DNA of 64,000 nucleotides from Sipunculus nudus. Its lineage: Eukaryota; Annelida; Sipuncula; Golfingiida; Sipunculidae. This document shows, piece by piece, positions 1,064-62,641 of the stretch. The DNA lies in NCBI GenBank assembly GCA_026874595.1, contig CM049311.1:62953453-63017452 (forward strand), in the 5' to 3' direction. Within the stretch, counting starts at the first letter, position 1, and every line of letters starts with the position of its first letter. The translations under genes and the position numbers were made by a program. The notes beneath the pieces are model-generated. The model did not search any database and was not told the DNA's origin. It was given only the letters and a program-made list of their open reading frames with translations.

Positions 1064-1713
1064 TATGCCCCCGCCACAAAGTGGCCGGGGCATAAAGTTT
1101 TACCCATGTCCGTCATTCCGTCATTCTGTCATTCCGTCATTCCGAAATCAAACAGTTGTACGGACTTTTCTTCGCAATGCCTGCAGATATTGGCCTGATT
1201 TTTTGTGTGTGGGCAGATAATGACCAGTTACAGATCGAGTTTGCGTTTCTTCCCGGTTGACCTACTTTTGACTGATTTACGGCTCTAAAACTTAGAAAAT
1301 TTCATGAAAAATAGAAATTTTCATGACAATTATACACATGTACGGACTTTTTTTTCGCAATGCCTGCAGATATTGGCCTGATTTTTGGTGTGTGGGCAGA
1401 TAATGACCAGTTACAGATTGAGTTCGCGTTTCGTTCCGGTTGACCTACTTTTGACCGTTTTACGGCTCCTAAACATAGAAAAATTCATGAAAAATAGAAA
1501 TTTTCATGACAAATACACATGTACGGACTTTTTTTCGCAATGCCTGCAGATATTGGCCTGATTTTTGGTGTGTGGGCAGATAATGACCAGTTACAGATCG
1601 AGTTCGCGTTTCGTCCTGGTTGACCTATTTTTGACCGTTTTACGGCTCCTAAACTTAGAAAAATTCATGAAAAATAGAAATTTTCATGACAAATACACAT
1701 GTACAGCCATTTT

Positions 1714-4313
1714 TGGCCCTCAGCGCATAGGCTGATAGGCTATTGTCGTAACTGAAGCTGTCCGTCTGTCCGTCCGTCCATCTGTCTGTCCGGTGTCTGT
1801 CCCTGCGTCCGTTCCGCGTCTGTTAACTTTTACCTTGTGAGCGGGATATCTCTAAAAGGATTCACCGTTGGAATTTTATTTCATCAGTTAAGATGTATAT
1901 CGATAAAATCTCGGTCAAGGTCGAAGATGGGTGACCTTGACCCATTTTTTAGCTCAGCTGACTATAAGTCATCTGAGCTATAGTCGTTGTCCATTGTCCG
2001 TCGTCCATCCGTCTGTCCGTCCGTCCGTCAGTCCGTCCGTAGATGTGGCACGTTTTGAAACCGTAAGACCTAGGAATCCAAAATTCAGCATAATGTTAGA
2101 TGTCCCTAAGATCTCCTACCAAGCTGAAAACTGGGTCTTTGCGACTTCGTTCCTTTGAGAAATTAAGGAAAAACCTCAATTTTTTATTAAAATCCTATTT
2201 TCACACTTCAGGACTGCCTAATATCAAAACCACTCATCTGTTTTTCCTCATATTAACCATAAATATTCTTCTATATAGTTCCTATGTACATGCCAGAAAT
2301 TAAGTCTGTTAAGTATAAATTCTTAAAGTTATGGGCCCAAACATAATGGACTTTGTAAAAATTCAGGAAAAATATTTACTCACTTAACATGAAAAATTTT
2401 GAAACTAGAGTCTATTTTCCCAAGTATATAACTATGTTTAATTAAGATTCAATTGTTTACCCAAAATTAGTTCTGAATTTTGTAAATTTTTTAAGTAATT
2501 AGCATAAAAATAAAATCAGTACCTTAAATTTTGCCCAACTTTGTCCATGGCACGTTTTTTTCCTGTAAGTACCATTGATTTAATTTTCACAGCATGTAAA
2601 CATAAATATTTAATTTGTTTAAATCTGAAATTTGGAAGTAAAAGCTTGAAAATTAAGCTAGTTATTGATTTTTTTCTTGAGGCTCTATTGTAGTCATTTG
2701 CTTTGATTACAGATTACAGATGCAGGGTCCCACTCCAGGTCACTGGAAGTCAGCTATGCCAGGGTTTCTGATTTGTTACAGTCACTGGGGGAGATCCCCT
2801 GCTGTGACAGGTGTACAGTTATTCTCATATCACCACCCCAATCAGCCCCCCCCCCCCCGCCCCCCCCTCCCCCCAACCAAACCCAGCAAGTGTTATGCAG
2901 TATTGTTATTGTTTTCACTGTATATCCTTAATTGTAATGCTGTTTCCACTCTAATATGCAAAAACTTTCCTTGAAAAAGTAATTCAAGGTGTAATCCAGA
3001 AGATGCAATGTTGTGTAATGTAGCATTTTTAAAGAAATCATTTTTCTTTTAAATGATTTTACCAATCATAATGGGACCCATCAGTATGCTTAAATTATGA
3101 TAAAATATGAAGCACATTATGGATAAATAAAGACACAATTAAAAATTGTGAAATCTAAATCAAGTATTTTTTTTTAGATATTTATTGTTTTTCAGATTTA
3201 AAAGATATATTTTTGTGGTAAAAAATAAATAAACATTTGTATGCATGATGTGGTGTTATCTGACAAGATTGAGATTTATGATGATGCAATTGAGAATTAT
3301 GAATCAACTTTTATATTCAGATATATATGTTATATTGAAAATGTATAGAAATATAAACTTAAATTAAAAAAAAAATTGATGTGATAAAAAAATGAGGATT
3401 TATTACAAACATTCGTTCATTATTTTCCTGCATCAGCAGAATTTGAGATCAGGCTTTGTTTGCCATGTTTTATGTTGTTAATTAGTTATATTTCAGCTGT
3501 ATACATTTCATAAAAAAAACATATATTTAATAATTTATATATACAAAAAAAATATTCGATTGAACAAATGTGTAAACTACTGAAATGTCAACAGTTAATC
3601 GAAAAGCCAACTAATGATCATGGTAATTGTACAGAGCATTTGTTCACAAACTGCTCACATGCTTCAGTTTCAACATTAGGAAACACATGGTCAGGTCACA
3701 AAATATTATTTGCAACAATTTCTTGCTCATCAATACAAACCAATCATATAAACCAACCATGGCCTTTATTACCTCTTCCTCTTACACTTTATCTCAATTT
3801 GATATTATTTTAGATTTTTACCTTCAAGGTTAATGTCAGCTGAGCACAGTGACCCATAGGTCCCTTGTCTACAATTTACAGCTGAATATAGAAAAACACA
3901 CAGAAGTTTATATCTCAGGAACCATTGTGTGGATTTTCACAAAACTTACTATGATCATTGGGACTGATGGTCTGTATGTGCTGCACAATTTTGGTGGTGC
4001 CACCTGCAATTTCTGATTTTTTAATGAAATTTTATCGGATTTTTTTCAATTTTGGCCTTTTGTGCTGGATATCTCCAAAGGTATTCAACACAGGAACTTC
4101 ATTTCTTCAGTGCTATTGCATTATATTTACAAAATCTTAGTCAAGTTCAAAGATGGGTGATCTTGACCTACTTTTCAAGGATACAGAGCTTAGTATAGAA
4201 AAAAACTTAGGAGCTCATTTCTCAGGAAGCATTTGGTGGATTGTTTTGAAACATGGCATATACCTCTCCAATTTAAATTTATAAATGATTATCAACTTTT
4301 GCTAATATTCTAG
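1714..4313 (+). mobile_element. Family C Helentron/pearl-like element (copy C1), nested in A1
   Basis: Begins GGCCCTCAGC with hairpin to GGCTGATAGGC, then repeated GTCC motifs. It ends in AATATTCTAG at 4310-4313, and family A sequence resumes directly after. Internal text (GAGCGGGATATCTCTAAAAG and so on) matches copy C2 at 36894-37924. Its own core is interrupted by a family B element at 1950-3867. Confidence 0.75.
1950..3867 (+). mobile_element. Family B Helentron/pearl-like element (copy B1), nested in C1
   Basis: Starts TAGCTCAGCTGACTATAAG, an imperfect hairpin with CATCTGAGCTATAG, then TCC/GTCCGTCC repeats. The end holds GTCAGCTGAGC (inverse of the 5' arm), the palindrome TGACCCATAGGTC and CTTG at 3864-3867. 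Family C sequence is contiguous across the insertion, without a target duplication, as expected for T|T insertion. Same subfamily as B5 at 40149-42051. Contains a C-run at about 2848-2873. Confidence 0.8.
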
Positions 4314-4698
4314 TTTTGCAATGCAATGCTTACAGATACTGGCCTAATGTTTGGTCTGTGGGCGCATAATGACCACTTACAGATCGAGTTCGCGTTTCGT
4401 CCCAGTTAACCTATTTTTCACCATATGACAGATCCTGAACATAGAAAATTTCATGAAAGACAGAAATTTTCATGATAAATGCACATATATGGACTTTTTT
4501 CACAATGCCTGCATATACTGGCCTGATTTTGGTGTGTTGCTTGATAATGACCCTTTACAGATCGAGTTTGCATTTTGCCCTTGTTGACCTACTTTTGACC
4601 ATACAAACACCTCCTGAACTTAAAAAATTTTACAAAATTTAACAAATGTTTCTAATTTGCCCCAGGCGGGACCATTCGTGTCGTTCCGACACATCTAG

Positions 4699-5342: not shown

Positions 5343-7431
5343 TTAGGCCAAAATAAAAAAAAAGGTATGGTTCTCAGGCACTTTTTTTCAGAAAACAATG
5401 CGGGCGGGCGCTTTTTATGCCCCCGCCACAAAGTGGCCGGGGCATATAGTTTAACCCATGTCCGTCATTCCGTCCTTCCGTCATTCCGAAATGAAACAGT
5501 TGTACGGACTTTTTTTCGCAATGCCTGCAGATATTGGCCTGATTTTTGGTGTGTGGGCAGATATAGACCAGTTACAGATCGAGTTTGCGTTTCGTCCCGG
5601 TTGACCTACTTTTGACCGTTTTACGGCTCCTAAACTTAGAAAATTTCATGAAAAATAGAAATATTCATGACAGATACACATGTACGGACTTTTTTTCGCA
5701 ATGCCTGCAGATATTGGCCTGATTTTTGGTGTGTGAGCAGATATAGACCAGTTACAGATCGAGTTCACGTTTCGTCCTGGTTGACCTACTTTTGACCGTT
5801 TTACGGCTCCTAAACTTAGAAAATTTCATGAAAAATAGAAATATTCATGACAGATACACATGTACGGACTTTTTTTCGCAATGCCTGCAGATATTGGCCT
5901 GATTTTTGGTGTGTGAGCAGATATAGACCAGGTACAGATCGAGTTCGCGTTTCGTCCTGGTTGACCTACTTTTGACCGTTTTACGGCTCCTAAACTTATA
6001 AAATTTCATGAAAAAAATAGAAATATTCATGACAGATACACATGTACGGACTTTTTTTCGCAATGCCTGCAGATATTGGCCTGATTTTTGGTGTGTGAGC
6101 AGATATAGACCAGTTACAGATCGAGTTCGCGTTTTGTCCTGGTTGACCTACTTTTGACCGTTTTACGGCTCCTAAACTTAGAAAATTTCATGAAAAAAAT
6201 AGAAATATTCATGACAGATACACATGTACGGACTTTTTTTCGCAATGCCTGCAGATATTGGCCTGATTTTTGGTGTGTGAGCAGATATAGACCAGTTACA
6301 GATCGAGTTCGCATTTCGTCCTGGTTGACCTACTTTTGACCGTTTTACGGCTCCTGAACATAGAAAATTTCATGATAAATAGAAATATTCATGACAGATA
6401 CACATGTACGGACTTTTTTTCGCAATGCCTGCAGATATTGGCCTAATTTTTGGTGTGTGGGCAGATATAGACCAGTTACAGATCAAATTCGCGTTTCGTC
6501 CCGGTTGACTTACTTTTGACCGTTTTACGGCTCCTGAACATAGAAAATTTCATGAAAAATATGAAATTTCATGACAAATACACATGTACAGACGTTTTTT
6601 CGCAATGCCTGCAGATATTGGCCTGAATTTTGGTGTGTCGGCAGATATTGACCAGTTACAGATGGAGTTCACGTTTTGTCCCAGTTGACCTATTTTTGAC
6701 CGTTTGACGGTGCTCTAACATAGAAAATTTCATAAAAAAGGTGCACATGTATGGACTTTTTTTCGCAGTGCCTGCAGATATGGGCCTGATTTTTGGTGTG
6801 TAGGCAGATAATGACCAGTTACAGATCGAGTTATTGTTTTGTCTCAGTTGACCTACTTTTGACCATTTGACTGCTCCTGAACATAGAAAGATTCATGAAA
6901 AATATAAATTTTCATAACAAATGCATATGTACTGACTTTTTTTCCTCAATGCCTGCATATACTGGCATGATTTTTGGTGTGTTGCTTGATAATGACCCGT
7001 TACAAATCAAGTTTGCATTTTGCCCTTGTTGACCTACTTTTGACCATACGACACCTCCTGAACTTAAAAAATTTTCCAAATTTTACAAATGTTTCTAATT
7101 TGCCCAAGGCGGGGGCATTCGTGTCGTTCCCACACATCTAGTTTTAATTTTAAATTTTTTGGTATGTTTCCATAAAAATGTCAAATGATAAGGGAAAAGC
7201 ATGAAAATAACAGTTTTATTCTGCTAAATAAGTAAAAGCACTACAAAACAAAGGAAATTGTAATTTGTATGGTTTTATCTTCTTGAAAGAAATGTTGGAG
7301 CGGCAGCAGCTCAAAATTGGAAAGTTTTTATTGAAAACCAAAATAAAAATTTTTGATGCGGGGGTTTAAAATTGATGTGGGTGGTGCCTGAGAACCATAC
7401 CTTTAATTTTTTTTGGCCTTATCTTTCAAAA
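5343..7431. mobile_element. Inverted-repeat MITE (family E) carrying nested A2
   Basis: Left end 5343-5383 (AGGCCAAAAT, poly-A, GGTATGGTTCTCAGGCAC) is the inverse of the right end 7388-7431 (GTGCCTGAGAACCATACC, poly-T, GGCCTTA). Without the nested element the MITE is about 360 bp. A second, partial copy starts at 63261. Confidence 0.75.
5416..7141 (+). mobile_element. Family A Helentron/pearl-like element (copy A2)
   Basis: Complete copy: 5' hairpin ATGCCCCCGCCAC / GTGGCCGGGGCAT, then about eight units of 180 bp, from 5502 to about 6930. It ends with the inverted arm GGCGGGGGCAT, a hairpin GTGTCG/CACAC (one mismatch) and CTAG at 7138-7141. Inserted in a T-run of the family E MITE. The six central units are very similar, which points to recent array expansion. 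Confidence 0.88.
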
Positions 7432-9420: not shown

Positions 9421-12400
9421 GTGAACCTCTTTTCCTACTTGTATATGCTTATTTTAAAGCATTTAAATGCTTATGATTTTGCACTTAATACTTGTTTTAT
9501 CAGAGTAGCTGATGTATGATCAGCCCACTTACCAGTGTATATAGATCTCTGTGGATACAGATAAGAGTATATGGATTTCCATAAGGGCGAGCGTGATAAA
9601 ATCGCTCCTATGCTAATATCACTGGGTTGTTTCCACATGCGCATAAGCAAGAGTGAGAGCAAACGCAAATGGGATTTTCTGAATTGCGCCAGGTAGTGAG
9701 TCCGAAACCTGTTGCACAGTATTCACATGGGAATTCATTAAAATGACGTAATGAAAGGGGACATCCCTGTGTTAACTGCACATACCTAAAGCTAAACCAG
9801 CATGCAGAAAAAAAATATGATTTTCAATATTGGTGATGTGGATAGATTGGTAGAATAGATAAATGAAAGGCAATACATATACTGTTTATTCGATATCACT
9901 TTTCTTCATCACAGTGACATTTAATTGAATGGAAATGGGGGACGGGGAGGGAAAGTAACTTAAAAAATCTCGAGCGACATATATTCTCTATTATAGATAA
10001 ATACAGATTTGAACATGCCTATCACTATAGAATACTCACTTTTTAAGTTTACAAAACTCACCAAATGAAACTTAATTTCTGTAATATAATCGTGTAGAAA
10101 AGACTAGAAATAGCGGGTCCCATCACATATTTGGAAACACACCACATGAACGGCTCACGACGCATATTCAGATTCACTCGAGTTTGCGCTTATGGAAACA
10201 TAGCTGTATGTCATAGCATGATCAACACACTTTAGTTTTGCAGCATACAAGGTTTACATATCTAAAGATATGACAACACCACATACAATGTATTGCATAA
10301 TTTCGTGTTTCCAGATCAGTGTGTTACACATTTCAAATTATAAAAAATACCTAGTCATGACTCATAAAAACTGATTGATAATTAGTTATGTAAATAAGAT
10401 TACTTGATGCCTAAAAACTGAATACAAAAAAGGTCCTTGACTCAATATAGCACTTTTGATTAAAAATGTTCAGCAATCAGCAGTGTGTATTCATCTTAAA
10501 GATTGCATGCTGGTTTTTTAGCTCAGCTGACTTTCAGTCATGCTGGGCTATAGCGATGGGTCTTTGTCCGGCGTCCTTCCGTCTGTCCGTCCGGCCGGCC
10601 GTCCGTCCGTCTGTTAGCAGGGCACAAATCGTAACTGTAGGGGCTAGGGCCATGAACCCTATGCAGTCTTAGAGGTTATAAAAAGATCTCCTTGCAAACC
10701 TGAAATTAGGTCACTGCGACCTATATTCTCGAAGTTACGGGGTATGTTTGCACCCCCCAGAAATAACTCTTTGAGACAAAATTTTCATCCCAAACCTTCC
10801 ATCTTTCACATACAGCTCACCTACCAACAGGGGAAGAACCATAATTTTTTTTAGCTCAAAAGGTCAAAGGTCAAGGTCACAGGAGCCTCTTCTTTGAAAA
10901 GCCTGTGGATGCATTTAAAGCCAACCCTTTCATCCCAATTCTTTGATCTTTCACATATAGCTCACCTACTAAGTTGGAGAAGAATCCTGTAGATTTTGAG
11001 GTCACAAGGTCAAAGGTCAGGGTCACAGGATCCACTTCTTTGAAAAGGTAGTGGACACATTTCAAGCTAGACTTTTCATTCCAAACCTTCCAGCACTGAT
11101 ATCGCTTCTCTGCCAACAGGGGAAAATACCTGTTGATTTTGAGGTCAAAGGTCAAGTTCACAGCACCCACTTCTTGTGTGGAATCATTTTCAGGCAAACT
11201 TTTCAATTTGTACCTTCCATATGGCTTACCTACCAATAAGGGAAGAAGCCTATTGATGTTGAGGTCAAAAAGTCAAAGGTCAAGGTCACAATATTTAATT
11301 GTTCTAAATGCTTGTGAGCATATTTCAAGTGTAACTGTTCAACCCAAACCTTCAGTCTTTCACATATGCCACATCTATGCATCACTCAGTTTGACTCAAA
11401 CTTCATATTTATGGGTCTTTTTGCTTGAATAAATAACTTATTGATTTTGGGGTCAGCTGGTCAGCAGGTTAAAGGTTGCAGGTCAAAGTTATTCACCCAT
11501 TGGTTGCCAAGTATTTACACCAGATTTAAGTGGTCAGTAGTTACCCATCATTTAGAAAGAATCCAGTTGATATATGGGCAAAAGGCCAAGGTCATAGGTC
11601 AGGGATGTTCACAATTACTTATTTTATAGACCATCTCTATTTTTAGCTCAGCTGACTGAAAGTCATCTGAGCTATAGCGATCACTCTTTGTCCGTCGTCC
11701 GTCTGTCCGTCTGTCCGTCTGTCCGTCCGTTAACCAGGCACAAATCGTAACCGCTGGACCTAGAACCTTGTAACTTGGGATTCTGAGAGGTCCATAAAAA
11801 ATCTCCTTGGAAACCAGAAATTAGGTCTCTGTTACCCATATCCTTCGAGCTATGGGGCCCCAAAGTACCCCCCAGAAAAGTCAAAAATTTCATACAAAAA
11901 CTTCAATATCTCATTAACTACTTGACTGATGGTCATGATTTTTGGCATACATATTGATCATGAGATGTTACATCACTTCCTGCAGACTGGTGGCGCCACC
12001 TGTATTTTTCGATTTTTTACGAATTTTTTTCTCTATTTTTGAGACCTTTAAAAATGTGAACATCTGTTAACAAGGCACAAATCATAAAGACTGGACTTAG
12101 AATCTTAATTCTTGACACACTGAGAGGTCCATGAAAAATCTCCTTGGAAACCAGAAATTAGGTCTCTGTTACCCATATCCTTTGAGCTATCGGGCCCCAA
12201 AGTACCCCCCAGAATAGTAAAAAATTTCATACAAAAACTTCAATATCTCAATAACTACATCACTGATGGTCTTCATTTTTGGCATACATATTGATCATGA
12301 GATGTTCGATCAGTTCCTGCAGACTGGTGGCGCCACCTGTACTGTTTGATTTTTTACGATTTTTTCCTCTATTTTTGAGACCTTTGAGGATGCTGTCATC

Positions 12401-15400
12401 TGTTAGCGTGGCACAAATCGTAACGACTGGACCTAGAATCTTCATTTTCAACACACTGAGAGACCTATGAAAAGTCTCCATGGAAACCAGAAATTAGGTC
12501 TCTGTTACCCATATCCTTCGAGCTATGGGGCCCAAAATTACCCCCCCAGAATAGTCAAAAATTTCATACAAAAACTTCAATATCTCATTAACTACATCAC
12601 TGATGGTCATGATTTTCGACATACATATTGATCATGAGATGTTTCATCAGTTTGTGCAGACTGGTGGCGCCACCTGTATTTTTCAATGTTCACGAATTGT
12701 TTTCTCCATTTTTGAGACCTTTAAGGATGTAGTTATCTGTCAACAGGGTACAAATCGTAACGACTGGACCTAGAATCTTCGTTCTTGACACACAGGGAGA
12801 CCCATGATAAGTCTCCTTGGAAACCTGAAATTTGGTCTCTGTTACCCATATCCTTCAAGCTATGTGGCCTCAAAGTACCCCCCAGAAAAGTAAAAAATTT
12901 CATACAAAAACTTCAATATCTCATTAACTACATGACTGATGGTCATGATTTTTGGCATACATATTGATCATGAGATGTTACATCACTTCCTGCAGACTGG
13001 TGGCGCCACCTGTATTTTTCGAATTTTTACGAATTTTTTTCTCTATTTTTGAGACCTTTAAAAATGTGAACATCTGTTAACAAGGCACAAATCATAAAGA
13101 CTGGACTTAGAATCTTAATTCTTGACACACTGAGAGGTCCATGAAAAATCTCTTAGGAAACCAGAAATTAGGTCTCTGTTACCCATATCCTTTGAGCTAT
13201 CGGGCCCCAAAGTACCCCCCAGAATAGTAAAAAATTTCATACAAAAACTTCAATATCTCAATTACTACATCACTGATGGTCTTCATTTTTGGCATACATA
13301 TTGATCATGAGATGTTTGATCAGTTCCTGCAGACTGGTGGCGCCACCTGTACTGTTTGATTTTTTACGATTTTTTCCTCTATTTTTGAGACCTTTGAGGA
13401 TGCTGTCATCTGTTAGCGTGGCACAAATCGTAACGACTGGACCTAGAATCTTCATTTTCGACACACTGAGAGACCTATGAAAAGTCTCCATGGAAACCAG
13501 AAATTAGGTCTCTGTTACCCATATCCTTCGAGCTATGGGGCCCAAAATTACCCCCCAGAATAGTCAAAAATTTCATACAAAAACTTCAATATCTCATTAA
13601 CTACATCACTGATGGTCATGATTTTCGACATACATATTGATCATGAGATGTTTCATCAGTTTGTGCAGACTGGTGGCGCCACCTGTATTTTTCAATGTTC
13701 ACGAATTGTTTTCTCCATTTTTGAGACCTTTAAGGATGTAGTTATCTGTCAACAGGGTACAAATCGTAACGACTGGACCTAGAATCTTCGTTCTTGACAC
13801 ACAGGGAGACCCATGATAAGTCTCCATGGAAACCTGAAATTTGGTCTCTGTTACCCATATCCTTTGAGCTATCTGGCCCCAAAGTACCCCCCAGAATAGT
13901 AAAAAATTTCATACAAAAACTTCAATATCTCAATAACTACATCACTGATGGTCTTCATTTTTGGCATACATATTGATCATGAGATGTTCGATCAGTTCCT
14001 GCAGACTGGTGGCGCCACCTGTACTGTTTGATTTTTTACGATTTTTTCCTCTATTTTTTAGACCTTTGAGGATGCTGTCATCTGTTAGCGTGGCACAAAT
14101 CGTAACGACTGGACCTAGAATCTTCATTTTCGACAGACTGAGAGACCTATGCAAAATCTCCATGGAAACCAGAAATTAGGTCTCTGTTACCCATATCCTT
14201 GGAGCTATGGGGCCCAAAATTACCCCCCAGAATAGTCAAAAATTTCATACAAAAACTTCAATATCTCATTAACTACATCACTGATGGTCATGATTTTCAA
14301 CATACATATTGATCATGAGATGTTTCATCAGTTTGTGTAGACTGGAGGCGCAACCTGTATTTTTCAATGTTCACGAATTGTTTTCTCCATTTTTGAGACC
14401 TTTAAGGATGTAGTTATCTGTCAACAGGGTACAAATCGTAACGACTGGGCCTAGAATCTTCGTTCTTGACACACAGGGAGACCCATGATAAGTCTCCATG
14501 GAAACCTGAAATTTGGTCTCTGTTACCCATATCCTTTGAGCTATGGCACTCCAAAGTACAGCTCAGAATAATGGAAAATTTGATACAAAAGCTAAAGTAT
14601 CTGAACAACTAATGCAGAGATAACCATAATTGTTTGCATGGATATTGATCATGGAGTGTTTCATAAGTTTCTGCAGACTGGTGGCACCACCTGTATTTGT
14701 ATCCGCCAAAACAGAGTTTTGCGGATACTATGTTTTCAGCTGCACGCCGCCGCCGCCGCGGCCACGTAGGTGTCCGGAGAACTCCTCCGTAACCACTGGG
14801 CGGAATTTTCCGAAACCCGGGATTATGTTCGGGTCACATGTGAACTGCTGCGCCCCGATTTTTTTTTTACCTCTGACCTTTCCTTTGCGCTCTGTGTCCG
14901 TTTGTGCGTCTGTTTCCACACATAAACCCACATATCTCGGGAACTGTTTGACCGATCAGGAAAATTTTTTTGCACAAATGTAGCCCTTGGAGAGCTTTAT
15001 AACATACACCAAAAATGGTGGCACCACCTGCAACCATGTTTGCACAGTGTCCATCTGTTCGTCTGCCTTGGGTTAAAATCACTCATATCTCTGCAGTGAC
15101 TTGACTAATTCACCTGAAATTGGGCATGCGTAAACATCCTGGATAGCTTTTCTGATTTTATGACAGGTGGCGCAACCTACATTCACGTTTACGCTGCAGA
15201 CATCCAAGCTCATATCTCGGGAACCGTTTGACCGATCAGGAAAATTCTTTTGCACAAATGTAGCCCTTGGAGAGCTTTATAACATACACCAAAAATGGTG
15301 GCGCCACCTGCAACCATGTTTGCACAGTGTCCATCTGTTCGTCTGCCTTGGGTTAAAATCACTCATATCTCTGCAGTGACTTGACTAATTCACCTGAAAT

Positions 15401-18400
15401 TGGGCATGCGTATACATCCTGGATAGCTTTTCTGATTTTATGACAGGTGGCACCACCTACATTCACGTTTATGCTGCAGACATCCAAGCTCATATCTCGG
15501 GAACCGTTTGACCGATCAGGAAAATTCTTTTGCACAAATGTAGCCCTTGGAGAGCTTTATAACATACACCAAAAATGGTGGCGCTACCTGCAACCATGTT
15601 TGCACAGTGTCCATCTGTTTGTCTGCCTTGGGTTAAAATCACTCATATCTCTGCAGTGACTTGACTAATTCACCTGAAATTTGGCATGCGTATACATCCT
15701 GGATAGCTTTTCTGATTTTTATGACAGGTGGCGCCACCTACTTTCACGTTTACGCTGCAGACATCCAAGCTCATATCTCAGGAACCGTTTGACCGATCAG
15801 GAAAATTTTTTTGCACAAATGTAGCCCTTGGAGAGCTTTATAACATACACCGAAAATGGTGGCACCACCTGCAACCATGTTTGCACAGTGTCCATCTGTT
15901 CGTCTGCCTTGGGTTAAAATCACTCATATCTCTGCAGTGGTTTGACTAATTCACCTGAAATTCGGCATGCTTATTCATCCTGGATAGCTTTTCTGATTTT
16001 ATGACAGGTGGCGCCACCTACAATCAAGTTTACGCTGCAGACATCCAAGCTCATATCTAGGGAACCGTTTGACCGATTGGGCCAAAATTTTGCATGTGTA
16101 TAAATCTCACATAGCTCTTTATCATATGCAAAACTGGTGGCGCCACCTGCAGCCATGTTTGCACAGCTCCCATCTGTTTGTCTGCCATGGGATAAAATCA
16201 CTCATATCTCGGCAGTGGTTTGACATATCTGCCTAAAATTTTGCAAGTTTATACATCCCCGACAGCTCTCATGATTTTATGACAGGTGGCGCCACCTGCA
16301 TTCTAGTTTATGCAGCAGATATCCAAGCTCATATCTTTGGAACCGTTTGACCGATTGGGCCAAAGTTTTGCATGTGTATAGAGCTTTCTGGATTTTTTCG
16401 TAGGTAGCGCAACCTACATACACAATTTGGCTGCAGACATCCATGCTAATATGCAACACTTCACCCGTTCCACTCTGATTTAGGCGGATACAAGTAGTCG
16501 CTTGTCGACTACCCGTATTCTAGTTGTTCGTTTTTTTTTACGAAATTTTTCTGTATTTTTGAGACCTTTAAAGATATGACCATCTGTTAACAGGGCACAA
16601 ATCATAAAAACTGGACCAAGAATCTTCATTCTTGACTCACAGGGAGACCCATGAAAAGTCTCCATGGAAACTTGAAATTAGGTCTCTGTTACCCATATTC
16701 TTTAAGCTGTATGGGTCCAAAATCCCCCCCCCCCCCCCAGAATAATGGAAAATTTTATACAAAAACTGCAGTATTTCAATAACTACAACACTGATTGTCA
16801 TGATTTTCGGCATACATATTGATCATGAGCTGTTCCATCAGTTTCTGCAGACTGGGTGTGCCACCTCTATTTTTTTTTCAAATTTTTACGAATTTTTTTT
16901 TTTTTTGAGACCTTTAAAGATGTGGTTATCTGTCAACAGGGTACAAATCGCAACAACTGGACCTAGAATCTTCATTCTTGTCATGCAAGGAGGCCCATGA
17001 AAGGTGCCTGTGGAAACTTGAAATTAGGTCTCTGTTACCCATATCCTTCAAGCTATAGGACTCCGAAGTATCCCTCAGAATAATGGACAATTTGATACAA
17101 AAACTGAAGTATCTGAACAACTAATGCAGAGATCACCATGATTTTTTGCATGGATATTGACCATTAAGTGTTTTTATTAGTTTCTGCAGACTGGTGGAGC
17201 CACCTGTATTTTTGTATCCGCCAAAATGAAGTTTTGCGGATACTATGTTTTTGACAGAGTTTTGACAGGCGCCACCTGTCATAAAATCAAGAAAGCTGTC
17301 CACGATGTATAAACCTGCAAAATTTTAGGCAGTTATGTCGAACCACTACAGAGAAATGAGTGATTTTAGGCCACGGCAGACTAACAGACAGACCCTGTGC
17401 AAACATTGTTACAGGTGGCGCCACCATTTTTTGTGTATGTTACAGAGCTATCAAAGGGCTACATTTGTATAAATTTTATTTCCTGATCGGTCAAACGGTT
17501 CCCGAGATATAAGCTTGGATGTCTGCAGCGTAAACTTGATTGTAGGTGGCGCCACCTGTCATAAAATCAAGAAAGCTATCCTGGATGTATACACATGACG
17601 AATTTCAGGTGAATTAGTCAATTAACTGCAGAGATATGAGTGATTTTAACCCAAGGCAGATGAACAGATGGACACTGTGCAAACATGGTTACAGGTGGCG
17701 CCACCATTTTTTGTGTATGTTATAAGCAATCCAAGGGCTACATTTGTATCAATTTGATTTCCTGATCGGTCAAACGGTTCCCGAGATATGAGGGTTTATG
17801 AGTGGAAACAGACCCACAAATGGACACTGGATAGAGAGAAAAGGTCAGAGGTCAATGCAAATTGGTTAGGCACCAGTTCACATGTGACCCGATAATAGGT
17901 GTAAGTTTGGGAAAAATCGGTCCATTAGTCTCCGAGGAGCTCTCTGGAAACGAACGCTGTCAAAAAAATTGTGCATGTGTTTAGATCTCACATAGGTCTT
18001 TATCATACACAAAACTGGAGGGGTTACCTGCAAAGATTTTTGCACAGTGTTTGTCTGTTTGTCTGCCATGGGCAAAAATCGCTCATATACATGTAGTGGT
18101 TTGACTTTTCTGCCTAAAATTTTGCAGGTGTATACAACTTGGACAGCTTTCTGGATTTGTGGTAGGTGACACAACCTACATACACATTTAGGCTGAAGAC
18201 ATCCATGCTAATATGCAACATACCTCACTCTATTTCCCCTTGCCACTCAATCCATGCCTCACTATCCGATTTTGGCAGATACATGTAGTCACTTGTCGGT
18301 TACCTGTATTCTATTTTTAAAATTTAACACATTTTTCTCTATTTTGAGATATATAAATACAGACTAAATCTTGGCCTGTTGGTTAATCTGTTTGATGCTT

Positions 18401-21400
18401 CAGTTGAATGGGTATATACTACCATTCTGATGATAAAATTTCCTTTTGCGAATCTCTTCCCAGTCAGCTGAGCGTCATGACCCATGGGTCACTTGTTCTT
18501 GTATATATAACCATCCCACTCCAGCTGGTACATCTCCCTGTGTGGCTGTAATTGTGAGTGACACTGGTGACATATGACTCCCTTTTGTATCAGCCTATTA
18601 AGTGATAAGGCTCAGTGATAAGTACCTCGTTACTTCATAACAAAAACACTGTTGTCAGAATGCTTCAGCCAGGCATTAAGACTATGAGAGTATAGTATTA
18701 AGGTTTAGCTTCTGATTTATAAGATGATGGGAACATTTTGCAGTTTATTTTATGGAATCCTAGCAATAAACTTAGTTTCCTAGATATCTGAATATTTTAA
18801 TATATATCACCACATATAAAAGCAAGTGTTTGTTCTCATAATATGTGGATGTGTACCTTGATTTAGGATGGCTTTTTGTTTTATTTCAAGACTCTTAGTC
18901 ATGCTTTCTGCATTTCTTTTCTTTCAGGTTTGGCAGTTTACCTACCCTGCTGACCCCATTGAAAAGCCGAGTGATAATAAAAATATTGGACTTACACTTT
19001 TTACAATTGCATATCTATAAATCTGATACGAGGGCCTGGACATGCCTTTTGAATTATTTTGGGCATTTATTACTGGATAATTTGCCCCAAGTTTGGTCTC
19101 TTATTGGAGAATGTGGGATATCAAATGTCATACTTGTCAGAAATCCATTATGTCTGCCAGTTAGCCACCTTAGAAATTCTTTCTTCAGGGCAGTTTCAGT
19201 AATTTTTCTTTAATGTTTGGTCCGATTTAAAGAATGTATGTTGTCTGATTTCAGACTTGTCAGAAGTCCAATATGGCCGCCAGGCAACCATCTTTTAATT
19301 CCTTTTGATCATATTATCTCAAGAACAGTTAAAGTGAATGCAGTTGGATGTATATTTATGTAATCTTGTAAAGGATTGGGTCAAATATTTCTGAATAAAT
19401 ATTACCATCATTTATAAAAGTGCAGTACAGTTGGCTTGTATTGAATAAAAATTCATACAGAAGCACATGTTTCTCAATAATTCTTGCATGAAACTCCTTG
19501 ATTTTTGCTATATATTTTGATCTTATATTTGCCCTTTGTGGTGTTCCTTTTGAAACTGACAGGTTTCAAGCAAACTGTTGGAATAGTTCCTGATAGCTTA
19601 ACAATCATGCATTTTCCTCAGACCATCAATTCACTGTGTTTTAACCAGACATAGGTGATATATATTTCTGTTGTCATAGAAAATGTTCAACAAATTGGCA
19701 AATTGGTTCTTCAAAATTTGACTGGAAGTTTTGAATCTCAGTCCATGATGTCACAGGTCATGCTTGGCAGCTGAGCGTCATGACCCATGGGTCACTTGTC
19801 TTCATGACAGTCTTGTCAGAGTATTAGTTTGCAATCATATATTTAGAACTTTACTATAACCAAGTAGGAGGGCCCCTTTCCTCTTAGCTTTTCATATTCT
19901 TATATAAATGAAAAACATTACAATAGAATATTTCTACATCCACCTTCGTGCTGCCCTCACTTTTCCCTTCTCCGAACCCCATCCCAAAGTCAGCCTCAGT
20001 AAGCAAGAACAAGATGAATCAGATATATTCATACTTTAATATTTTGTATAACTATTCGTCCATAGGTACCTATGTACATGCCAGAAATTATGTCAATATT
20101 GTGTAATATGTAGACATAGTGGGCATCACAATAATGTACCTTGTCAAGACTAAAGAGATTTTGTGTCATACAGTCACATATTCATAAATCACTTCATCAG
20201 CATAGTTAATCATAACATCATATCTGTCAAATTGAACGCTTGCAGACTACCATACACTTTAGATCCTTCAACAAATAGCCTTATCATCATTCTACTACTG
20301 CTTATTACTGCTGTCATTGCATTCATATTTGCTCAAATATATCACAATTTTCAACCCCTCCTAAATAAATAAAAAATAAACCACTTTATTTGACTCTATT
20401 AATCCATCAGTCAGGTAATTTCATTTATCATTTACTCACATATTACATTACATTCCTTTATAATAGCCTAACATGTACATGATATTCATAAGCTTTATCG
20501 ACTCGATATAGTATCACAGTGGAGAAACATTTATAGTCCAATCACGATCAGCTGAGCGCCGTGACCCATGGGTCCCTTGTTTTTTCAGTTCCCTACGCCA
20601 GGGCAGATTCCCCAGCTCCATACCATAGAGACCCTCTCCGGAGTGCAGGTGCACTTCATTTGAAAATTCCACCCAGTAACACGTATGTATTTCATTCACT
20701 GCAGTACAGTGTTCCCAGAAGTCTTTGCTTATGTGTAAGAGTTAATGGCTGTTAATAACATTACAAAGTGGGCATATTGACAAATAGAAAATTACTTGGC
20801 ATGATGAAATTGGCTTGTTTTTGCTTTTTTTTTTGGCTTTGAGTACTAAAAATTTATGTGTATAGACATATAGTCTGTCTCAAATCGACAGCAAACAGTG
20901 CAAAAATGTTACATTCTGATATAATAAATATGAATAAGCATTTACAAGAAAAGAAAATGTGAAGACTTTTTTTCCATTTAAACTGAAAAAATTGGTCAAA
21001 ATAATCATTTTGTGAAAAAAATAAAATGAAGTGAGTTAAAATGATATTTAAACTATATATGAATGTAACTGAATAAAATTTACACAAAAAAATGTAACTG
21101 GGTTGAAATTAATCATATGTTAATAAAGTGAATAGAAATAAATTATGCATACATTAAGTTGTGGCAAAGATTTATTTCATCCTCAGAAAGCTGAAGGGCC
21201 AACTTTAAAAATTGTATTAAATTAATGGGATTTTCAGTGGGTTATTTTTCATAATTACAGTGATAGCCAGAGCAGGTATGTCTGAATCAACTTCTGTTGT
21301 ATACCAGCTTGTGCATTGTTTAGCAGAAGCAGGCCTGTCACCAACTACTGCAGAGATTTCTGGCTGTGTAAATATTTCTCAAGTGCAAAATTAGATGTTG

Positions 21401-30400: not shown

Positions 30401-31739
30401 CTACTTTTGAGCGTTTGACGGTGCTCTAGCTTAGAAAATTTCATGAAAAAGTGCACATGTACAGACTTTTTTTCGCAGTGCCTGCAGATACGGGCCTGAT
30501 TTTGGGTGTGTAGGCAGATAATGACCAGTTACAGTTTGAGTTCTTTTTTTGTCCCAGTTGACCTACTTTTGACCATTTGACTGCTCCTGAACATAGAAAG
30601 TTTCATGAAAAATAGAAATTTTCATAACAAATGCATAAGTACGGACATTTTTTCCTCAATTCCTGCAGATACCACCCTGATTTTTTTATGTGTGGGCAGA
30701 TAATGCCAGTTACAGATCAAGTTCGCGTTTCATCCCAGTTGACCTACTTTTGATTGTTTTACAGCTCCTAAACATAGAAAATTTCATGAAAGACAGAAAT
30801 TTTTATGGAAAATGCACATGTATGGACTTTTTTTCACAGTGCCTGCAGATACTGGCCTGATTTTTGGTGTGTTGCTTGATAATGACCCATTACAGATCAA
30901 GTTTGCATTTTGCCCTGGTTGACCTACTTTTGACCATACGACACCTCCTGAACTTAAAATTTTGTTCAAAATTTAACAAATATTTCTAATTTGCCCCAGG
31001 CGGGGGCATTCGTGTCGTTCCGACACATCTAGTCTCTAATTAATGTTTGGTTAGACTTTTTCAGAATTGAATTTCATTCAGTACCATACAGCGGCACAGG
31101 TTCACTTAAAATTGTAGGATAAACATTCATAGACCAAATTCAGTAAAATAGTTGTATGACTTAAAAAGTCATTTCTCAAATCTGCCTTTCATATCTAATA
31201 GAATCTACCAAAATGACATCAACTTATTCTTTTTTTGGCCATATCTGGTAGATTTTTCTTAGTTACCTCATTCTGCTAAGCTTTATCAACTGCTGTTTGT
31301 TAAAGGTTCATGTGATGCACTCTTGTCAACAAGCCAAGCCTGCAAGTCTTATTCAAATCCTTATCGTGGTTGTCTTTTTACATGGGGCAGCTTAAAATTT
31401 GCAATATTTGCGGGGGCTGAGAGAGTGCAAAGTTGAAACACTGTGAAATTGAAACCACACAGATTTGAAACCGCACGGTTATGAATGCCAACTAGCTTAG
31501 TATGAGCGATGGTTTCAGAGGCTACGATTGGCGATGATTGTTGTGATTTGTATACTACCAATTAAGATTGCATTGAAATGCAGGTATGGCATAATTATAA
31601 GTTTGATTCAATGACCGTGCAATTAAAATTTCTCCCCCCTAACAAATTGAATGGTCAAGTGGTCACAGCTTGGTTTCTTAATTATACACTTACAGGTGAG
31701 GTTGGGCTCTAGCCTGATCTAAGCTTATTTTTTCAATAA

Positions 31740-33392: not shown

Positions 33393-33447
<55 letters not shown>

Positions 33448-39400: not shown

Positions 39401-42400
39401 TATTAAGAGGATGGTATAAGTTGAACCATAACCTGCTCATGGTTTTTGCAGTTTTGGCAAAATCAGTTTTCAATTTTTCCAAAACTAGGGTCAGGGATCC
39501 GAAAAATGTTCTGATTGGTTGTTCACACAGGGCAGCCTATTTTGTCATAGACGCACTTCTGGGTTAGTCCACCAAACTGATGGTAGGGTTGCTGGGATGT
39601 CTTGGATTGTATCCATAATCAGTTGATGGATGCATTACTATTTTTGTGTTTATTTAAGTTTAGTAGACTGGTATTTTTATCAATATGGTAGATATATGAA
39701 TAACTAAATTTTTCTTTCTTAAAGGTTACTGACCAGTCTGGTTGAAGTTAACAAGGCATACAATGAGTGTCTGCAAACTCTGGTTGAACAGCGAAAAGCC
39801 AGCATACAGCATATCAGGTATGTCAATTTGTAATGAGTAAGGCTAGCTTTCAGAAGAAATGTCACTACAGATCATGGATTAAATATTGAGATTTTAATAA
39901 CCATTGTTTAAACAGCATTAGATAAAGAACAGCATTATTTTGATGATTTAGACATGATTCAATTCCATTTAAAGCTAGAATTCCATATATGCGTATGCAG
40001 TATGTATATGTATGTGGTATATATGCATCAAAACCCTGCTATAACATAATGGTATTGTTTTGACATGGAACCATATATAGTCGAACTTCATAGTGGGCAC
40101 CTCCATAAAGTCAGCACCTGTGCAAAGGGCAGTTTTTGATAGTATTTTTAGCTCAGCTGACTATAAGTCATCTGAGCTATAGTCGTGGTCCTTTGTCCGT
40201 CGTTGGGCTGTCCTTCCGTTAACAGGGCACGTTTTAAAACCGTTGGACCTGCGATTCCAAAATTTTGCATACCATTAGATGTCCCCAAAATCTCCTACCA
40301 TACAGAAAATTGGGTCATTAGGACTTCGTTCCTTTGAGATATTACGGAAAAACTTCCGTTTTTCATAAAAAAGCCATTGTTACCTTTCCAGGCTGCCTAA
40401 TATCAAAACCACTTATCTGTTTTTGATCATATTTAGTATTCATATTCTTCCATACATTTTCTATAAACATACAAAAAATTAGGTCAGTGTTGGGTCTTAT
40501 TTTGAAGTTATGGGCCAAAATATAACGCAATTTTTAAAAAATCAGGAAATATATTTACTCACCTAACATGAGAATTGCTTAAGCTAGAGACTTTTTTTCA
40601 GGAATATAACTTTATTTAATCAAGATTCAATTGTTTACCCAAAATTAGATCTGAATTTTGCAAATTTTTCAAGTTATTAGCATAAATAAAAAATTGATAC
40701 CTTAAATTTTGTCCAACTTTGGCAATGGCACGTTTTTTCCCTGTAAGTACTGTTGATTTAATTTTCACAGCATATATACATAAGGATTTAATCTTAAAAA
40801 ACCAGAAATTTCAAAGGAATTGATTGAAAAGGGTAGCTTTTATTCAATTTTTCATACACCATGTTAAGTGTTGTTTACATCTAGTTCAGCCTTCATTTGC
40901 ATTAGGTAACCCACCCCCACCCCAGGCAGCTTGCCTTGGCTCAGCTTGGCCACTACCAGCAGGCTTCCCCTCTGCCCTGCACTCTCTCCCCCCCCCCCCC
41001 CCCCCCTCAAGATGGTGCATAAACAAGATGATTATTGTTAATATGTTATTATTTTCTGTATTTGATTCATTCTTATTCTTGGCTATGCTACATTTTAAAT
41101 TTTGTATAGTACCACCAGGGTTACAATGATTAAAGTGCCCATTTAATTGTGTCCACAAAGTGGTGTATTGCTATGAAAGTGTGGATGTTCATCAGATAAG
41201 TAATTCCTTACTTCAGAAGAGTAAAAACTTCACCACATGTGAAATTGACTATTAATTCCAGTAATAAATTAAAGCTGAGATAGTAATTAGTACAGTGATA
41301 TTGTTTGTCCCTCATTCAACCAACAGTGTGTATACTTTATTTGAAAAGATGTTTTATTTTACAATGTGCAAAACTTTTTAATAGTGATTCAAGGAATAAT
41401 CTTTTAGATGCCATGTTGTGGCATTATTTTCTTTTAAATTCTGTTTAAACATTTGTGATTTAAAAATAATAACATATATATATATGTGTATGCATAATAT
41501 GACCCAATATGAGCTACACTCTGGATATAAATAATGATTGCAAAAATTCTAATATTTTAACTTATATTTCAGTTTTTTTTTACTCTTGATGTATAATGAT
41601 TGCAACTTTTGCAACAATTCTAATATTTTAACTTGTATTTTCAGTTTTTTTTTATTTATAAAACTTGTAAATAAAAAAAAATGATTCAGATAAAACCTTT
41701 TAATGGAAAAAGTGGATATGCTAAAAAAAAAGGCTTATATATATACTTAAATGCATTATTCCCTAGAAAGTGAAATAAAGGTATCAGTCCATTCTGTCCA
41801 CTTGCCTGTCCATCTGTAAATTTTCATATGCATCACAGTATCTCAAAACTTTTACTGTTTTTCTTCATGATAGTCTTTTCAGAGTATTAGTTTGCAATCA
41901 TATATTTAGAACTTTACTATAACAAAGTAGGAGGGCCCCTTTCTTCTTAGCTTCTCATATTCTTATATAAATGAAAAACATTACAATAGAATATTTTGCA
42001 TTTGCAAAATTTTCAAACTTCATCTGAGCTCCGTGACCCATGGGTCCCTTGTTCTGTATTTATTATAGTGTGCTCATCACCTCTAAAAGTGGGCATCTTT
42101 TATATGTGATAGTCTAGTGTAGTCCCAAGGGTGCCTGCATTATAGAAGTGTCACTCATTTACTGTGTTTCAATATGTCAGCTAGTGGTCAATGTAAGATG
42201 TTTTTACAGAGCTCTGTGTGGGCCTGATCTATCAGCGGGGGCAGTGCCTGAAACATCCAATATACGGGGGCCCGCATCCACTTTGAAAATGGAACAGAGG
42301 CTCCTAAAGTGGCTACGGGAAGTTGGAGCTGATGAGGAGTGTATAGAAAAGGTATGATATGATCATGTGATTAGAATGTTAGGAATCAGACTCATCAAAA

Positions 42401-48801: not shown

Positions 48802-48807
<6 letters not shown>

Positions 48808-48862: not shown

Positions 48863-48865
<3 letters not shown>

Positions 48866-56300: not shown

Positions 56301-56387
56301 CTGTGTGGTCTACCCCTGATAACATCAAACATCAAATCTGAACAAGCCAACTCGTCACAGCTTACTATGCGTTCATCAGATGGTGGT
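56301..56387 (-). other. Likely exon of unidentified minus-strand gene
   Basis: Acceptor CTGATATTACAG and donor CAG|GTGAGA on the minus strand are good consensus sites. The exon carries one base, 28 codons (PPSDERIVSCDELACSDLMF and so on) and two bases, and joins in phase to the segment starting at 55888. The protein family is unknown to me. Confidence 0.5.
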
Positions 56388-59585: not shown

Positions 59586-59960
59586 AGAAGAAAATAAATG
59601 GCCGTAGCGGCAAGTAATTTTTTTTATAAATGAGCAATTACCTTCATGTACCTTCATGCATATTTCAATCATTATTAGGGTTTAGGAGGTGCTGATGGAT
59701 TCAAATTTACAAATGAACAAAAAGAACAAAACAACACGCGAAGAAATGGTAAATGCAAAAATATTATAATTACAAAGATTTTGAGAAATATGGACTTTAT
59801 GTGTGTATGTATCAAATGAATGTTTTTAAACACTCCTCTCCCAGGAAAATGATTCTCTGTTCTGATTTAAAGAATTTATTTGGGAACTTTATTTATGGCC
59901 CAATGAGATAGCTACACTGATCTACACAGAGTATTACACAGAATTTGAAAGAGAACATAC

Positions 59961-60033
59961 CACAGCCCCAGCGAAGTAATCACATAAAACATCAAAGGAT
60001 CCCTCGTAAAGTCGTGCAGAGGTTGGCACTGTC
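59961..60033 (-). other. Possible exon of minus-strand locus
   Basis: Minus-strand AG at 60034-60035 and donor GTG|GTATGT. One base then 24 codons (TVPTSARLYEGSFDVLCDYF and so on). The acceptor lacks a strong pyrimidine tract. Product unknown. Confidence 0.35.
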
Positions 60034-60713: not shown

Positions 60714-60923
60714 CAGAAGCGGATCCGGGGGGGGTCCAGTGGGTCCGGACCCTCCCTTTTTCACCCGAAGCAACCTTTTTTAAGGGGTTTTAGACGTAGT
60801 TTTGCGGCCTGGACCCCCCCCCCCCCCCTTTTCCAGACGTGATGACCTTTTTTTTAAGGATTTTTATTAGTCCTCCTGGGTTGAACCCCGCCCCCCTTTT
60901 CCTAATTCCTGGATCCGCCCCTG
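60714..60923. mobile_element. Short hAT-like MITE
   Basis: Ends CAGAAGCGGATCCGG and CTGGATCCGCCCCTG are inverted repeats of the widespread CAGGGGCGGATCC type. GTGAAG flanks both sides, a probable remnant of an 8-bp target duplication. The interior is rich in C and G runs (GACCCCCC, GGGGGGTCC). Confidence 0.8.
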
Positions 60924-61102
60924 GTGAAGGGACAGAACCTGAGTGCAGACGAACTTAATGAAATGTCATGACATCGACCTGGACAGCGTGAAAAAGAAGT
61001 CTGCGCAGTGTTCTAATGCACCTGGTAATATAGGCCGAATAAGTGAATGCCCACATGGGGAGGCTTGTATTGCTTGGAATGCAGATTTATTGTTGGTGTA
61101 AT

Positions 61103-62641
61103 TGTATCCGCCAAAACAGAGTTTTGCGGATACTATGTTTTCAGCTGGCCGCCGCCGCCGCCGCGTAGGTGTCCGGAGAACTCTCAGTAACCACTGGGCG
61201 GAATTTTCCGAAACCCGGGATTATGTTCGGGTCACATGTGAACTGCTGCGCCCCGATTTTGTTTTGACCTCTGACCTTTCCTTTGCGCTCTGCGTCCGTT
61301 TGTGCGTCTGTTTCCATACATAAACCCACATACCTCGGGAACCGTTTGATCGATCAGGAAAATTTTTTTTGCACAAATGTAGCCCTCGGAGAGCTTTATA
61401 ACATACACCAAAAATGGTGGCGCCACCTGCAACCATGTTTGCACAGTGTTCATCTGTTCGTCTGCCTTGGGTTAAAATCACTCATATCTCTGCAGTGACT
61501 TGACTAATTCACCTGAAATTGGGCATGCGTAAACATCCTGGATAGCTTTTCTGATTTTATGACAGGTGGCGCCACCTACATTCACGTTTACGCTGCAGAC
61601 ATCCAAGCTCATATCTCGGGAACCGTTTGACCGATCAGGAAAATTCTTTTGCACAAATGTAGCCCTTGGAGAGCTTTATAACATACACCAAAAATGGTGG
61701 CGCCACCTGCAACCATGTTTGCACAGTGTCCATCTGTTCGTCTGCCTTGGGTTAAAATCACTCATATCTCTGCAGTGACTAGACTGATTCACCTGAAATT
61801 CGGCATGCGTACACATCCTGGATAGCTTTTCTGATTTTATGACAGGTGGCGCCACCTACATTCACGTTTACGCTGCAGACATCAAAGCTCGTATCTCGGG
61901 AACCGTTTGACCGATCAGGAAAATTCTTTTGCACAAATGTAGCCCTTGGAGAGCTTTATAACATACACCGAAAATGGTGGCACCACCTGCAACCATGTTT
62001 GCACAGTGTCCATCTGTTCGTCTGCCTTGGGTTAAAATCACTCATATCTCTGCAGTGGTTTGACTAATTCACCTGAAATTCGGCATGCTTATACATCCTG
62101 GATAGCTTTTCTGATTTTATGACAGGTGGCGCCACCTACAATCAAGTTTACGCTGCAGACATCCAAGCTCATATCTAGGGAACCGTTTGACCGATTGGGC
62201 CAAAATTTTGCATGTGTATAAAGCTCACATAGCTCTTTATCATACGCAAAACTGGTGGCGCCACCTGCAGCCATGTTTGCACAGCTCCCATCTGTTTGTC
62301 TGCCATGGGATAAAATCACTCATATCTCGGCAGTGGTTTGACATATCTGCCTAAAATTTTGCAAGTTTATACATCCCCGACAGCTCTCTTGATTTTATGA
62401 CAGGTGGCGCCACCTGCATTCTAGTTTATGCAGCAGATATCCAAGCTCATATCTTGGGAACCATTTGACCGATTGGGCCAAAGTTTTGCATGTGTATAGA
62501 GCTTTCTGGATTTTTTGGTAGGTAGCGCAACCTACATACACAATTTGGCTGCAGACATCCATGCTAATATGCAACACATCATCCGTTCCACTCTGATTTA
62601 GGCGGATACAAGTAGTCGCTTGTCGACTACCCGTATTCTAG
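61103..62641 (+). mobile_element. Family D Helentron/pearl-like element (copy D3)
   Basis: Complete: TGTATCCGCCAAAAC hairpin, CCG run, TGCGTCCGTTTGTGCGTCTG, core units of about 280 bp, GGCGGATAC, hairpin GTAGTCG/CGACTAC, CTAG at 62638-62641. Very close to D1 in sequence but with one core unit fewer. Confidence 0.9.

What the first reader, a model, noticed from the sequence alone, without database searches (positions are those of the whole stretch)
1064..62641. Six unrelated-end element families share one hidden architecture
Families A, B, C, D, F and G have different terminal sequences, yet each follows the same order. First comes a 5' terminal hairpin made of arm x and its inverse x'. Then come a GTCC/GTCCGTC tract, a tandem-unit core (in most), and a second copy of x' near the 3' end. 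A separate short hairpin follows, then a CTAG, CTTG or CTAA end, with T's outside. Arm x can therefore pair with x' at either end. This matches what is known of Helentron-derived HINE and bivalve pearl elements; the parallel triple use of one arm across at least six families in one locus suggests a common mobilising machinery that tolerates fully different ends.
Basis: partly seen in the sequence, partly recalled or inferred. Interest (0 to 1): 0.8.

Follow-up and report, generated by a model that had tools for sequence, protein, structure and literature searches.

The report
Bivalve-type HINE transposons, known architecture
The stretch holds several families of small parasitic DNA elements (HINEs, thought to be moved by rolling-circle Helentron transposons) that largely share one layout despite different end sequences, but this layout is already described in oysters and fruit flies; the less expected part is that neighbouring elements of different families tend to point the same way.

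Summary
Families A-D (and, less surely, E and F) use one ~12-nt arm at the 5' end, in an adjacent inverted copy, and again 20-40 nt before the 3' end, then a short palindrome and CTAG or CTTG. Arms match only their own family's 3' end. Exceptions: D1 lost its 3' copy, D's adjacent copy is weak, A, C and F have almost no GTCC tract, E's CTAA end is unverified. Borders: four nested empty sites, one paralogous empty site, aligned 3' flanks of 30 A, 20 C and 20 D copies; B rests on one nested site. Insertion is in T runs; no duplication beyond possibly two T's. Exact 3' ends: 1,726 A, 4,722 B, 904 C, 1,180 D; reversed controls 0. This is published HINE anatomy (11 oyster elements, PMC7492417; DINE-1). 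Helentrons exist in this genome, but their ends were not found, so "one machinery for all ends" stays untested. Unexpected: on contig C1, different families share strand within ~100 kb.

The parts
1064..4698 (+). HINE family A, copy A1, split by D1
   Evidence: 5' hairpin, 3' end CGTGTCGTTCCGACACATCTAG; 3' arm copy degraded, 9/13
1715..4313 (+). HINE family D, copy D1, inserted in a T run of A1's 180-bp array; 3' arm copy lost
   Evidence: nested empty site against other A units; 3' copy 5/12
1951..3867 (+). HINE family B, copy B1, inserted in a T run of D1
   Evidence: nested empty site against D2; arms 11/12 and 11/12
5416..7141 (+). HINE family A, copy A2 with 180-bp tandem core
   Evidence: 11/12 and 11/12
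29679..31032 (+). HINE family A, copy A3 with 180-bp tandem core
   Evidence: (10/12 and 10/12)
10520..11643 (+). HINE family B, 5' part of copy B2; its 3' end not assigned (candidate ends at 19799 and 20579)
   Evidence: imperfect 5' hairpin and GTCC tract; candidate ends
11645..18495 (+). HINE family B, copy B3 with 336-bp array, holding C1 and C2
14699..16523 (+). HINE family C, copy C1, in a T run of the B3 array
   Evidence: empty site against the previous array unit
17214..18313 (+). HINE family C, copy C2, in the homologous T run of another B3 unit; end reads CTA then T's
40150..42051 (+). HINE family B, copy B4, no tandem core listed
36895..37924 (+). HINE family D, copy D2 with 302-bp tandem core
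   Evidence: 3' copy 11/12; adjacent IR only 8/12, P 0.09
34303..35069 (+). putative HINE family E; 3' border not verified
   Evidence: arms 10/12 and 10/12; hit; CTAA end not tested genome-wide
35510..36215 (+). HINE family F with 144-bp tandem core; copy number not obtained
   Evidence: arms 9/12 and 10/12; one A copy elsewhere is followed by a relative of F, 94.6% identical over 92 bp
61104..62641 (+). HINE family C, copy C3 with 280-bp tandem core

Best explanation
These are non-autonomous Helentron-type rolling-circle elements (HINEs, the group of DINE-1 and bivalve pearl). Shown here for A-D: one arm used three times (with the stated exceptions in D), 3' palindrome, CTAG/CTTG borders, insertion in T runs without duplication beyond possibly two T's, about 900 to 4,700 exact 3' ends per family, no listed Rep match inside the window, and Rep-bearing Helentrons elsewhere in the same genome. 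Inferred from the literature: a Helentron Rep nicks at the 5' end, peels off one strand, stops at the 3' palindrome/end and pastes the single strand into a T run; the arm hairpin at either end would be the recognition structure. Not known: whether one Helentron serves all families or each has its own helper. The shared layout would then reflect a shared mechanism, with arms that differ between families but stay matched within each.
For: Anatomy with controls. Nested empty sites, 4. Paralogous empty site: A element of 1,708 bp in a Helentron; 98%-identical empty copy L068; 100 joined flank columns align without gaps, 6 mismatches. Aligned 3' flanks, first-listed copies on C1: A 30 of 1,726, then T 29/30 and T 28/30, then no consensus; C 20 of 904 and D 20 of 1,180, T 20/20 and 20/20, then T 19/20 and 18/20. 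Six of six A 5' ends with 20 nt of flank follow a T run (8 hairpins seen). Exact-end counts, reversed control 0 each: A 855+871, B 3' 2,408+2,314, B 5' hairpin 10,908+11,279, C 494+410, D 586+594. (GTCC)4 11,441+11,589 against 32+26. At least 143 PF14214 matches, 150 of 195 candidates scored; long open frames that I read as Rep-helicase-endonuclease. Published parallels: PMC7492417 (passages, sections 7 and part of 10), PMC4067079 (passages; 20, 59), PMC2374699 (passages; 24).
Against: No autonomous partner with matching ends found; the Helentrons' own ends were not defined. D1 lacks the 3' copy and D's adjacent IR is weak. A, C and F lack a proper GTCC tract. A duplication of TT cannot be excluded: D1 and B1 sites show two T's more than their unfilled relatives. 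3' CTAG is a canonical Helitron (CTRR) trait; PMC7992393 (passages) reports oyster elements mixing Helitron and Helentron traits. E's border and the copy numbers of E and F are unverified.
Confidence: 0.93

Rival explanations
1. One promiscuous Helentron moves all the families, reading the hairpin-plus-palindrome shape rather than the end sequence.
For: Same layout and T-run target in A-D; families nest in one another and abut (15 D-end to B-start junctions); neighbours of different families share strand; most of the 30 Rep loci held are related, about 79-99% alike at DNA level.
Against: Arms match only within a family, as expected for sequence-specific recognition; PMC4067079 reports partners with shared ends.
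Confidence: 0.2
2. Each family has its own Helentron helper with the same arms; the layout is shared by descent of the mechanism only.
For: Families defined by subTIR identity and matched pairs in PMC4067079 (passages); the 30 Rep loci fall into 16 groups by shared 15-mers at my threshold, and a few do not align with the main group.
Against: No matched pair found here; most Rep loci belong to one related group; PMC7492417 could not link 10 oyster autonomous Helentrons to its HINEs.
Confidence: 0.6
3. The elements are MITE-like and moved by a TIR transposase, with a TT target duplication.
For: Short, abundant, no listed Rep match in the window, inverted repeats; two of five empty sites have two extra T's.
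Against: The second arm copy is internal and followed by a palindrome; three of five empty sites show no clear TT gain.
Confidence: 0.03
4. The hairpins and third copies are chance patterns in low-complexity DNA.
For: D's adjacent inverted copy is not significant.
Against: 0 hits in 10 and in 5 sets of shuffled sequence; hundreds to thousands of exact ends genome-wide for A-D.
Confidence: 0.01

Closest known systems
Cg_HINE elements of Crassostrea gigas (PMC7492417)
   Same: 5' subTIR of 11-12 bp, adjacent complementary IR, GTCY/GTCC microsatellite in several, satellite-like tandem core, 3' subTIR, 3' palindrome, oligo-T target, no TSD reported, some elements unrelated in all modules
   Different: Sequences could not be compared; A, C and F here have other or very short microsatellites; empty sites are shown here from nesting
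DINE-1 of Drosophila (PMC2374699) and HINE/Helentron (PMC4067079)
   Same: subTIRs, partial IR beside the 5' subTIR (DINE-1; absent in mite HINEs), GTCY microsatellite, central repeats, 3' stem-loop, TT target with the same TT ambiguity discussed in PMC2374699
   Different: One to three types per fly species; here at least four families with tested borders in one 64-kb window; 3' ends CTAG/CTTG
Pearl, DTC84 and MgE elements of bivalves (named in PMC7492417)
   Same: Bivalve elements of comparable architecture; pearl with tandem cores
   Different: Sequences not compared here
Helitron2 with asymmetric terminal inverted repeats (PMC5148889, passages)
   Same: Asymmetric inverted repeats; hairpins at both ends in FoHeli1 and 2
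   Different: Fusarium elements end ATTTT or CTCCTGT; autonomous and non-autonomous copies are described
Canonical Helitron
   Same: 3' CTAG fits CTRR in A, C, D, F; 3' palindrome
   Different: Inserts in T runs, not between A and T; three-fold arm

Membership tests
HINE (non-autonomous Helentron) | 5' and 3' subterminal inverted repeats | tested here: met
   11 of 12 copies tested; D1 fails
HINE (non-autonomous Helentron) | IR beside the 5' subTIR (DINE-1 and oyster type) | tested here: met
   10 of 12 copies P<0.01; D1 and D2 not significant
HINE (non-autonomous Helentron) | GTCY-type microsatellite in the 5' part | tested here: inconclusive
   B and D yes (5-11 per 60 nt), E 4, A, C and F 1-2
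HINE (non-autonomous Helentron) | 3' palindrome after the 3' subTIR | tested here: met
   for A, B, C; for C and E; D and F read directly
HINE (non-autonomous Helentron) | Insertion in T runs (TT) | tested here: met
   for A-D (B one site); E and F not tested
HINE (non-autonomous Helentron) | No target site duplication | tested here: inconclusive
   nothing beyond T's in five sites; two extra T's in two of them
HINE (non-autonomous Helentron) | Non-coding | tested here: inconclusive
   no window match among the 143 PF14214 matches listed; no other ORF scan of the elements
HINE (non-autonomous Helentron) | Autonomous Helentron with the same ends | tested here: inconclusive
   Helentrons present but their ends were not found
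Canonical Helitron | Insertion between A and T | tested here: not met
   T runs on both sides in the empty sites; T after the 3' end in 29/30 A, 20/20 C and 20/20 D copies and before all six A 5' ends read
TIR-type MITE | Target site duplication | tested here: inconclusive
   none beyond a possible TT
Cg_HINE of oyster | Sequence identity of arms or cores | not testable with these tools

The most novel reading that the evidence does not exclude
Unrelated HINE families share a regional insertion polarity: within about 100 kb, copies of different families tend to lie on the same strand, and in the window all 14 lie on the strand of an ASK-like gene. T runs in the unmasked window are nearly symmetric, so the polarity may be imposed at integration by one shared route, for example pasting single-stranded DNA into the strand exposed by transcription or on one arm of a replication fork. 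Selection against one orientation in introns, unistrand piRNA clusters, or unrecognised segmental duplication would also fit.
Probability: 0.3. Interest if true: 0.65.

Novelty: new member of a known kind. Interest (0 to 1): 0.35.

Why it matters
The layout itself confirms, in this genome, that Helentron-type elements keep a three-fold use of one arm while the arm sequence differs between families. The dense nesting gives natural empty sites that fix the borders. If the strand coherence between unrelated families holds genome-wide and follows transcription or replication, it would make the target choice of rolling-circle transposons directly testable.

Tried and rejected
Autonomous partner: 30 Rep loci (of 143 listed matches) and L069-L082 were scanned for ten end sequences of A-F with up to 4 mismatches (E's 3' and F's 5' ends were not included). 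Two places matched: an A element next to one Rep frame in L066, which proved to be an insertion with an empty copy in L068, and a 4-mismatch match to the C end in L082, on the other strand, not followed. Ends of the Helentrons were sought by comparing copies: two copies are 99.4% identical over 5.7 kb past the frame, two others match up to about 2 kb past it, and the 5' side looks spliced to me; no end was defined.

Composite D-B elements: 3 of 20 D copies on C1 are followed at once by a B start, which looked frequent. Genome-wide there are 15 such junctions (its D part is shorter than the pattern that gave 1,180 D ends, so the rate is at most about 1.3%). Spacers are 2, 3, 5 or 6 T's and one irregular, so I read them as separate insertions; this is inference.

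Transcription as the cause of the strand coherence: a kinase motif pattern gave 127 matches against 46 in the control, 10 of them on C1, several being copies of one repeat. Around C1:9135114 (-) the listed HINEs within 70 kb are 3 on the same and 2 on the opposite strand, the nearest (C, 1.4 kb) opposite; around C1:84280669 (+) 2 of 2 within 71 kb are on the same strand. Too few to decide.

Strand coherence, results against: without the first 3 Mb of C1 cross-family agreement falls to 10/13 (2-10 kb), 15/19 (10-30 kb), 28/43 (30-60 kb) and 29/44 (60-100 kb), with 85, 28, 49 and 43 of 2,000 shuffles reaching it; then 63/116 (100-200 kb), 87/209 (200-400 kb, a reverse excess) and 313/592 (400 kb-1 Mb). 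In one search agreement stays at 57-63% beyond 100 kb, which I put down to the one-sided regions that the B lists cover. Each list is only the first 100 places on C1. Pairs are not independent; segmental duplication was not excluded.

Viral contigs: 0 matches to the A end. PDB search with one short exon: 0 matches.

Full report
What is there. The window lies in a 1.43-Gb assembly, contig 6, 62.95-63.02 Mb. That it is a bivalve is my inference from the elements. ASK-like exons lie on the + strand: one hits Pfam HisK-N-like (E 8.8e-4, 19.9 bits, below the cut-off of 27.8); two others (42211-42351, 44455-44532) had no Pfam match and are assigned from recall. Between and around them lie nested repeats, among them families A, B, C, D and the less certain E and F (14 copies annotated).

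Architecture. Searches place the parts; one search tests 12 of the 14 copies (A1 and B2 left out). The first 12 nt were compared with the 45 nt that follow and with the last 80 nt. The 3' copy is significant in 11 of 12 copies and specific to the family; the adjacent inverted copy is significant in 10 of 12. D1 has lost the 3' copy. Whole-order scans give hits only in real sequence (3 against 0 in ten Markov sequences; 11 against 0 in five sets). Tandem cores are listed in A (180 bp), B3 (336 bp), C1 and C3 (280 bp), D2 (302 bp) and F (144 bp); none in B1, B4 and C2.

Borders. Because elements nest, the window holds its own empty sites: D1 in A1, B1 in D1, C1 and C2 in B3. In all four the joined flanks align to an unfilled relative at a T run. 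T numbers differ: D1 and B1 sites have two T's more than the relative, so a TT duplication cannot be excluded; nothing else is duplicated. The cleanest case lies elsewhere: an A element of 1,708 bp sits in reverse upstream of a Rep frame (L066 with L083), and the 98%-identical copy L068 is empty; 100 joined columns align with no gap and 6 mismatches. The aligned 3' flanks of the first 30 of 1,726 A copies and the first 20 of 904 C and 20 of 1,180 D copies are conserved up to CTAG, then T, T in most, then no consensus. All six A 5' ends with enough flank follow a T run.

Copy number. Exact 3' ends: A 1,726, B 4,722, C 904, D 1,180; B 5' hairpins 22,187; reversed-pattern controls 0 in all five. 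(GTCC)4 occurs 23,030 times against 58 (overlapping matches in one tract count separately). F could not be counted; E was not tried.

Nesting. Of 70 3' flanks (150 nt for 30 A, about 40 nt for 20 C and 20 D), 15 match HINEs of the window at E up to 0.001 (8 A, 1 C, 6 D); two of the 15 are weak (about 80% over 41-42 bp) and three D cases are B starts right after the D end. C1 and C2 sit in the homologous T run of different B3 units, and two A copies (L024, L038) sit within 4 bp of the same B position. Fifteen D ends are followed within 8 nt of the first T by a B start.

Machinery. The genome holds at least 143 matches to the Helitron Rep domain. The two Helentrons read in detail have open frames that I read as Rep, helicase and an endonuclease-like C-terminus (no domain search was run on them beyond PF14214). 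The search with that C-terminus gave 151 matches, 150 of 829 candidates scored; many weak ones are probably other elements. Most of the 30 Rep loci held are 79-99% alike. I could not define the Helentrons' own ends, so partner identity is open, as it is in oyster (PMC7492417, section 10).

Known or new. PMC7492417 (passages, section 7, part 1 of section 10) lists 5' subTIR, IR complementary to it, microsatellite (GTCY, GTCC, GTCK in several), central repeats, 3' subTIR and palindrome in 11 elements, with oligo-T targets and no TSD, and a group unrelated in all modules. PMC2374699 (passages) gives the same list for DINE-1 and discusses the TT ambiguity, and PMC4067079 (passages) ties it to Helentrons. 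PMC5148889 (passages) gives asymmetric inverted repeats and hairpins at both ends for Helitron2. The finding is therefore a new set of members of a known kind. Preferential insertion near other Helitrons is in print for plants (PMC12477314, passage).

Strand coherence. All 14 annotated copies in the window are on +. In 500 listed places on C1 (the first 100 each for A, B 5', B 3', C and D), pairs of different families agree in strand in 6 of 7 cases below 3 kb, 53 of 56 at 3-20 kb, 175 of 216 at 20-100 kb and 299 of 478 at 100-300 kb; 0 of 300 label rotations reach the 3-20 kb or 3-100 kb figure, 3 of 300 the 100-300 kb figure. The first 3 Mb of C1 form a strongly one-sided region; without it agreement is 25 of 32 at 2-30 kb and 57 of 87 at 30-100 kb, then 54%, 42% and 53% in the bins up to 1 Mb. 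In the unmasked window runs of at least 3, 4 or 5 T's make 51-52% of T plus A runs, and runs of at least 6 or 7 make 46-49%, so target supply there does not explain it; downstream of 30 A copies T and A runs are 408 and 397, though 21 of 30 loci have more T than A. Nested copies may follow the T-rich strand of their host element. Paper searches for Helitron with orientation, strand-bias or lagging-strand terms (listings only, 12 of 31 and 12 of 19 papers shown) showed no title or abstract start on this; that is not proof of absence. The cause is unknown; the gene-based test was too small and mixed.

Noticed in passing
C1 of G000, places; window 1064-62641: HINEs of different families tend to lie on the same strand within ~100 kb; all 14 annotated window copies are on +, the strand of the ASK-like exons.
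   Followed up: partly
L106, L112, L122; 15 places: B elements start 2-6 T's (once with an irregular spacer) after the 3' end of D elements.
   Followed up: partly
L066 with L083, empty copy L068: A HINE inserted in reverse upstream of a Helentron Rep frame.
   Followed up: yes
window 44614-47325 and 56964-59588: Long tandem arrays of 30-bp and about 25-bp units, not assigned to any HINE found.
   Followed up: no
window 36341-36424, 42211-42351, 44455-44532: Exons of an ASK-like (MAP3K5/15) gene on +; one Pfam hit below cut-off, the others named from recall.
   Followed up: partly
window 18474-18495, 19770-19799, 20546-20579: Three B-type 3' ends in 2.1 kb, of which only one was paired with a 5' end.
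   Followed up: no
G000 C11:50385293, C7:31578448 and relatives: Helentron frames of up to more than 2,200 aa; two copies are 99.4% identical over 5.7 kb past the frame, which suggests recent activity or segmental duplication.
   Followed up: partly
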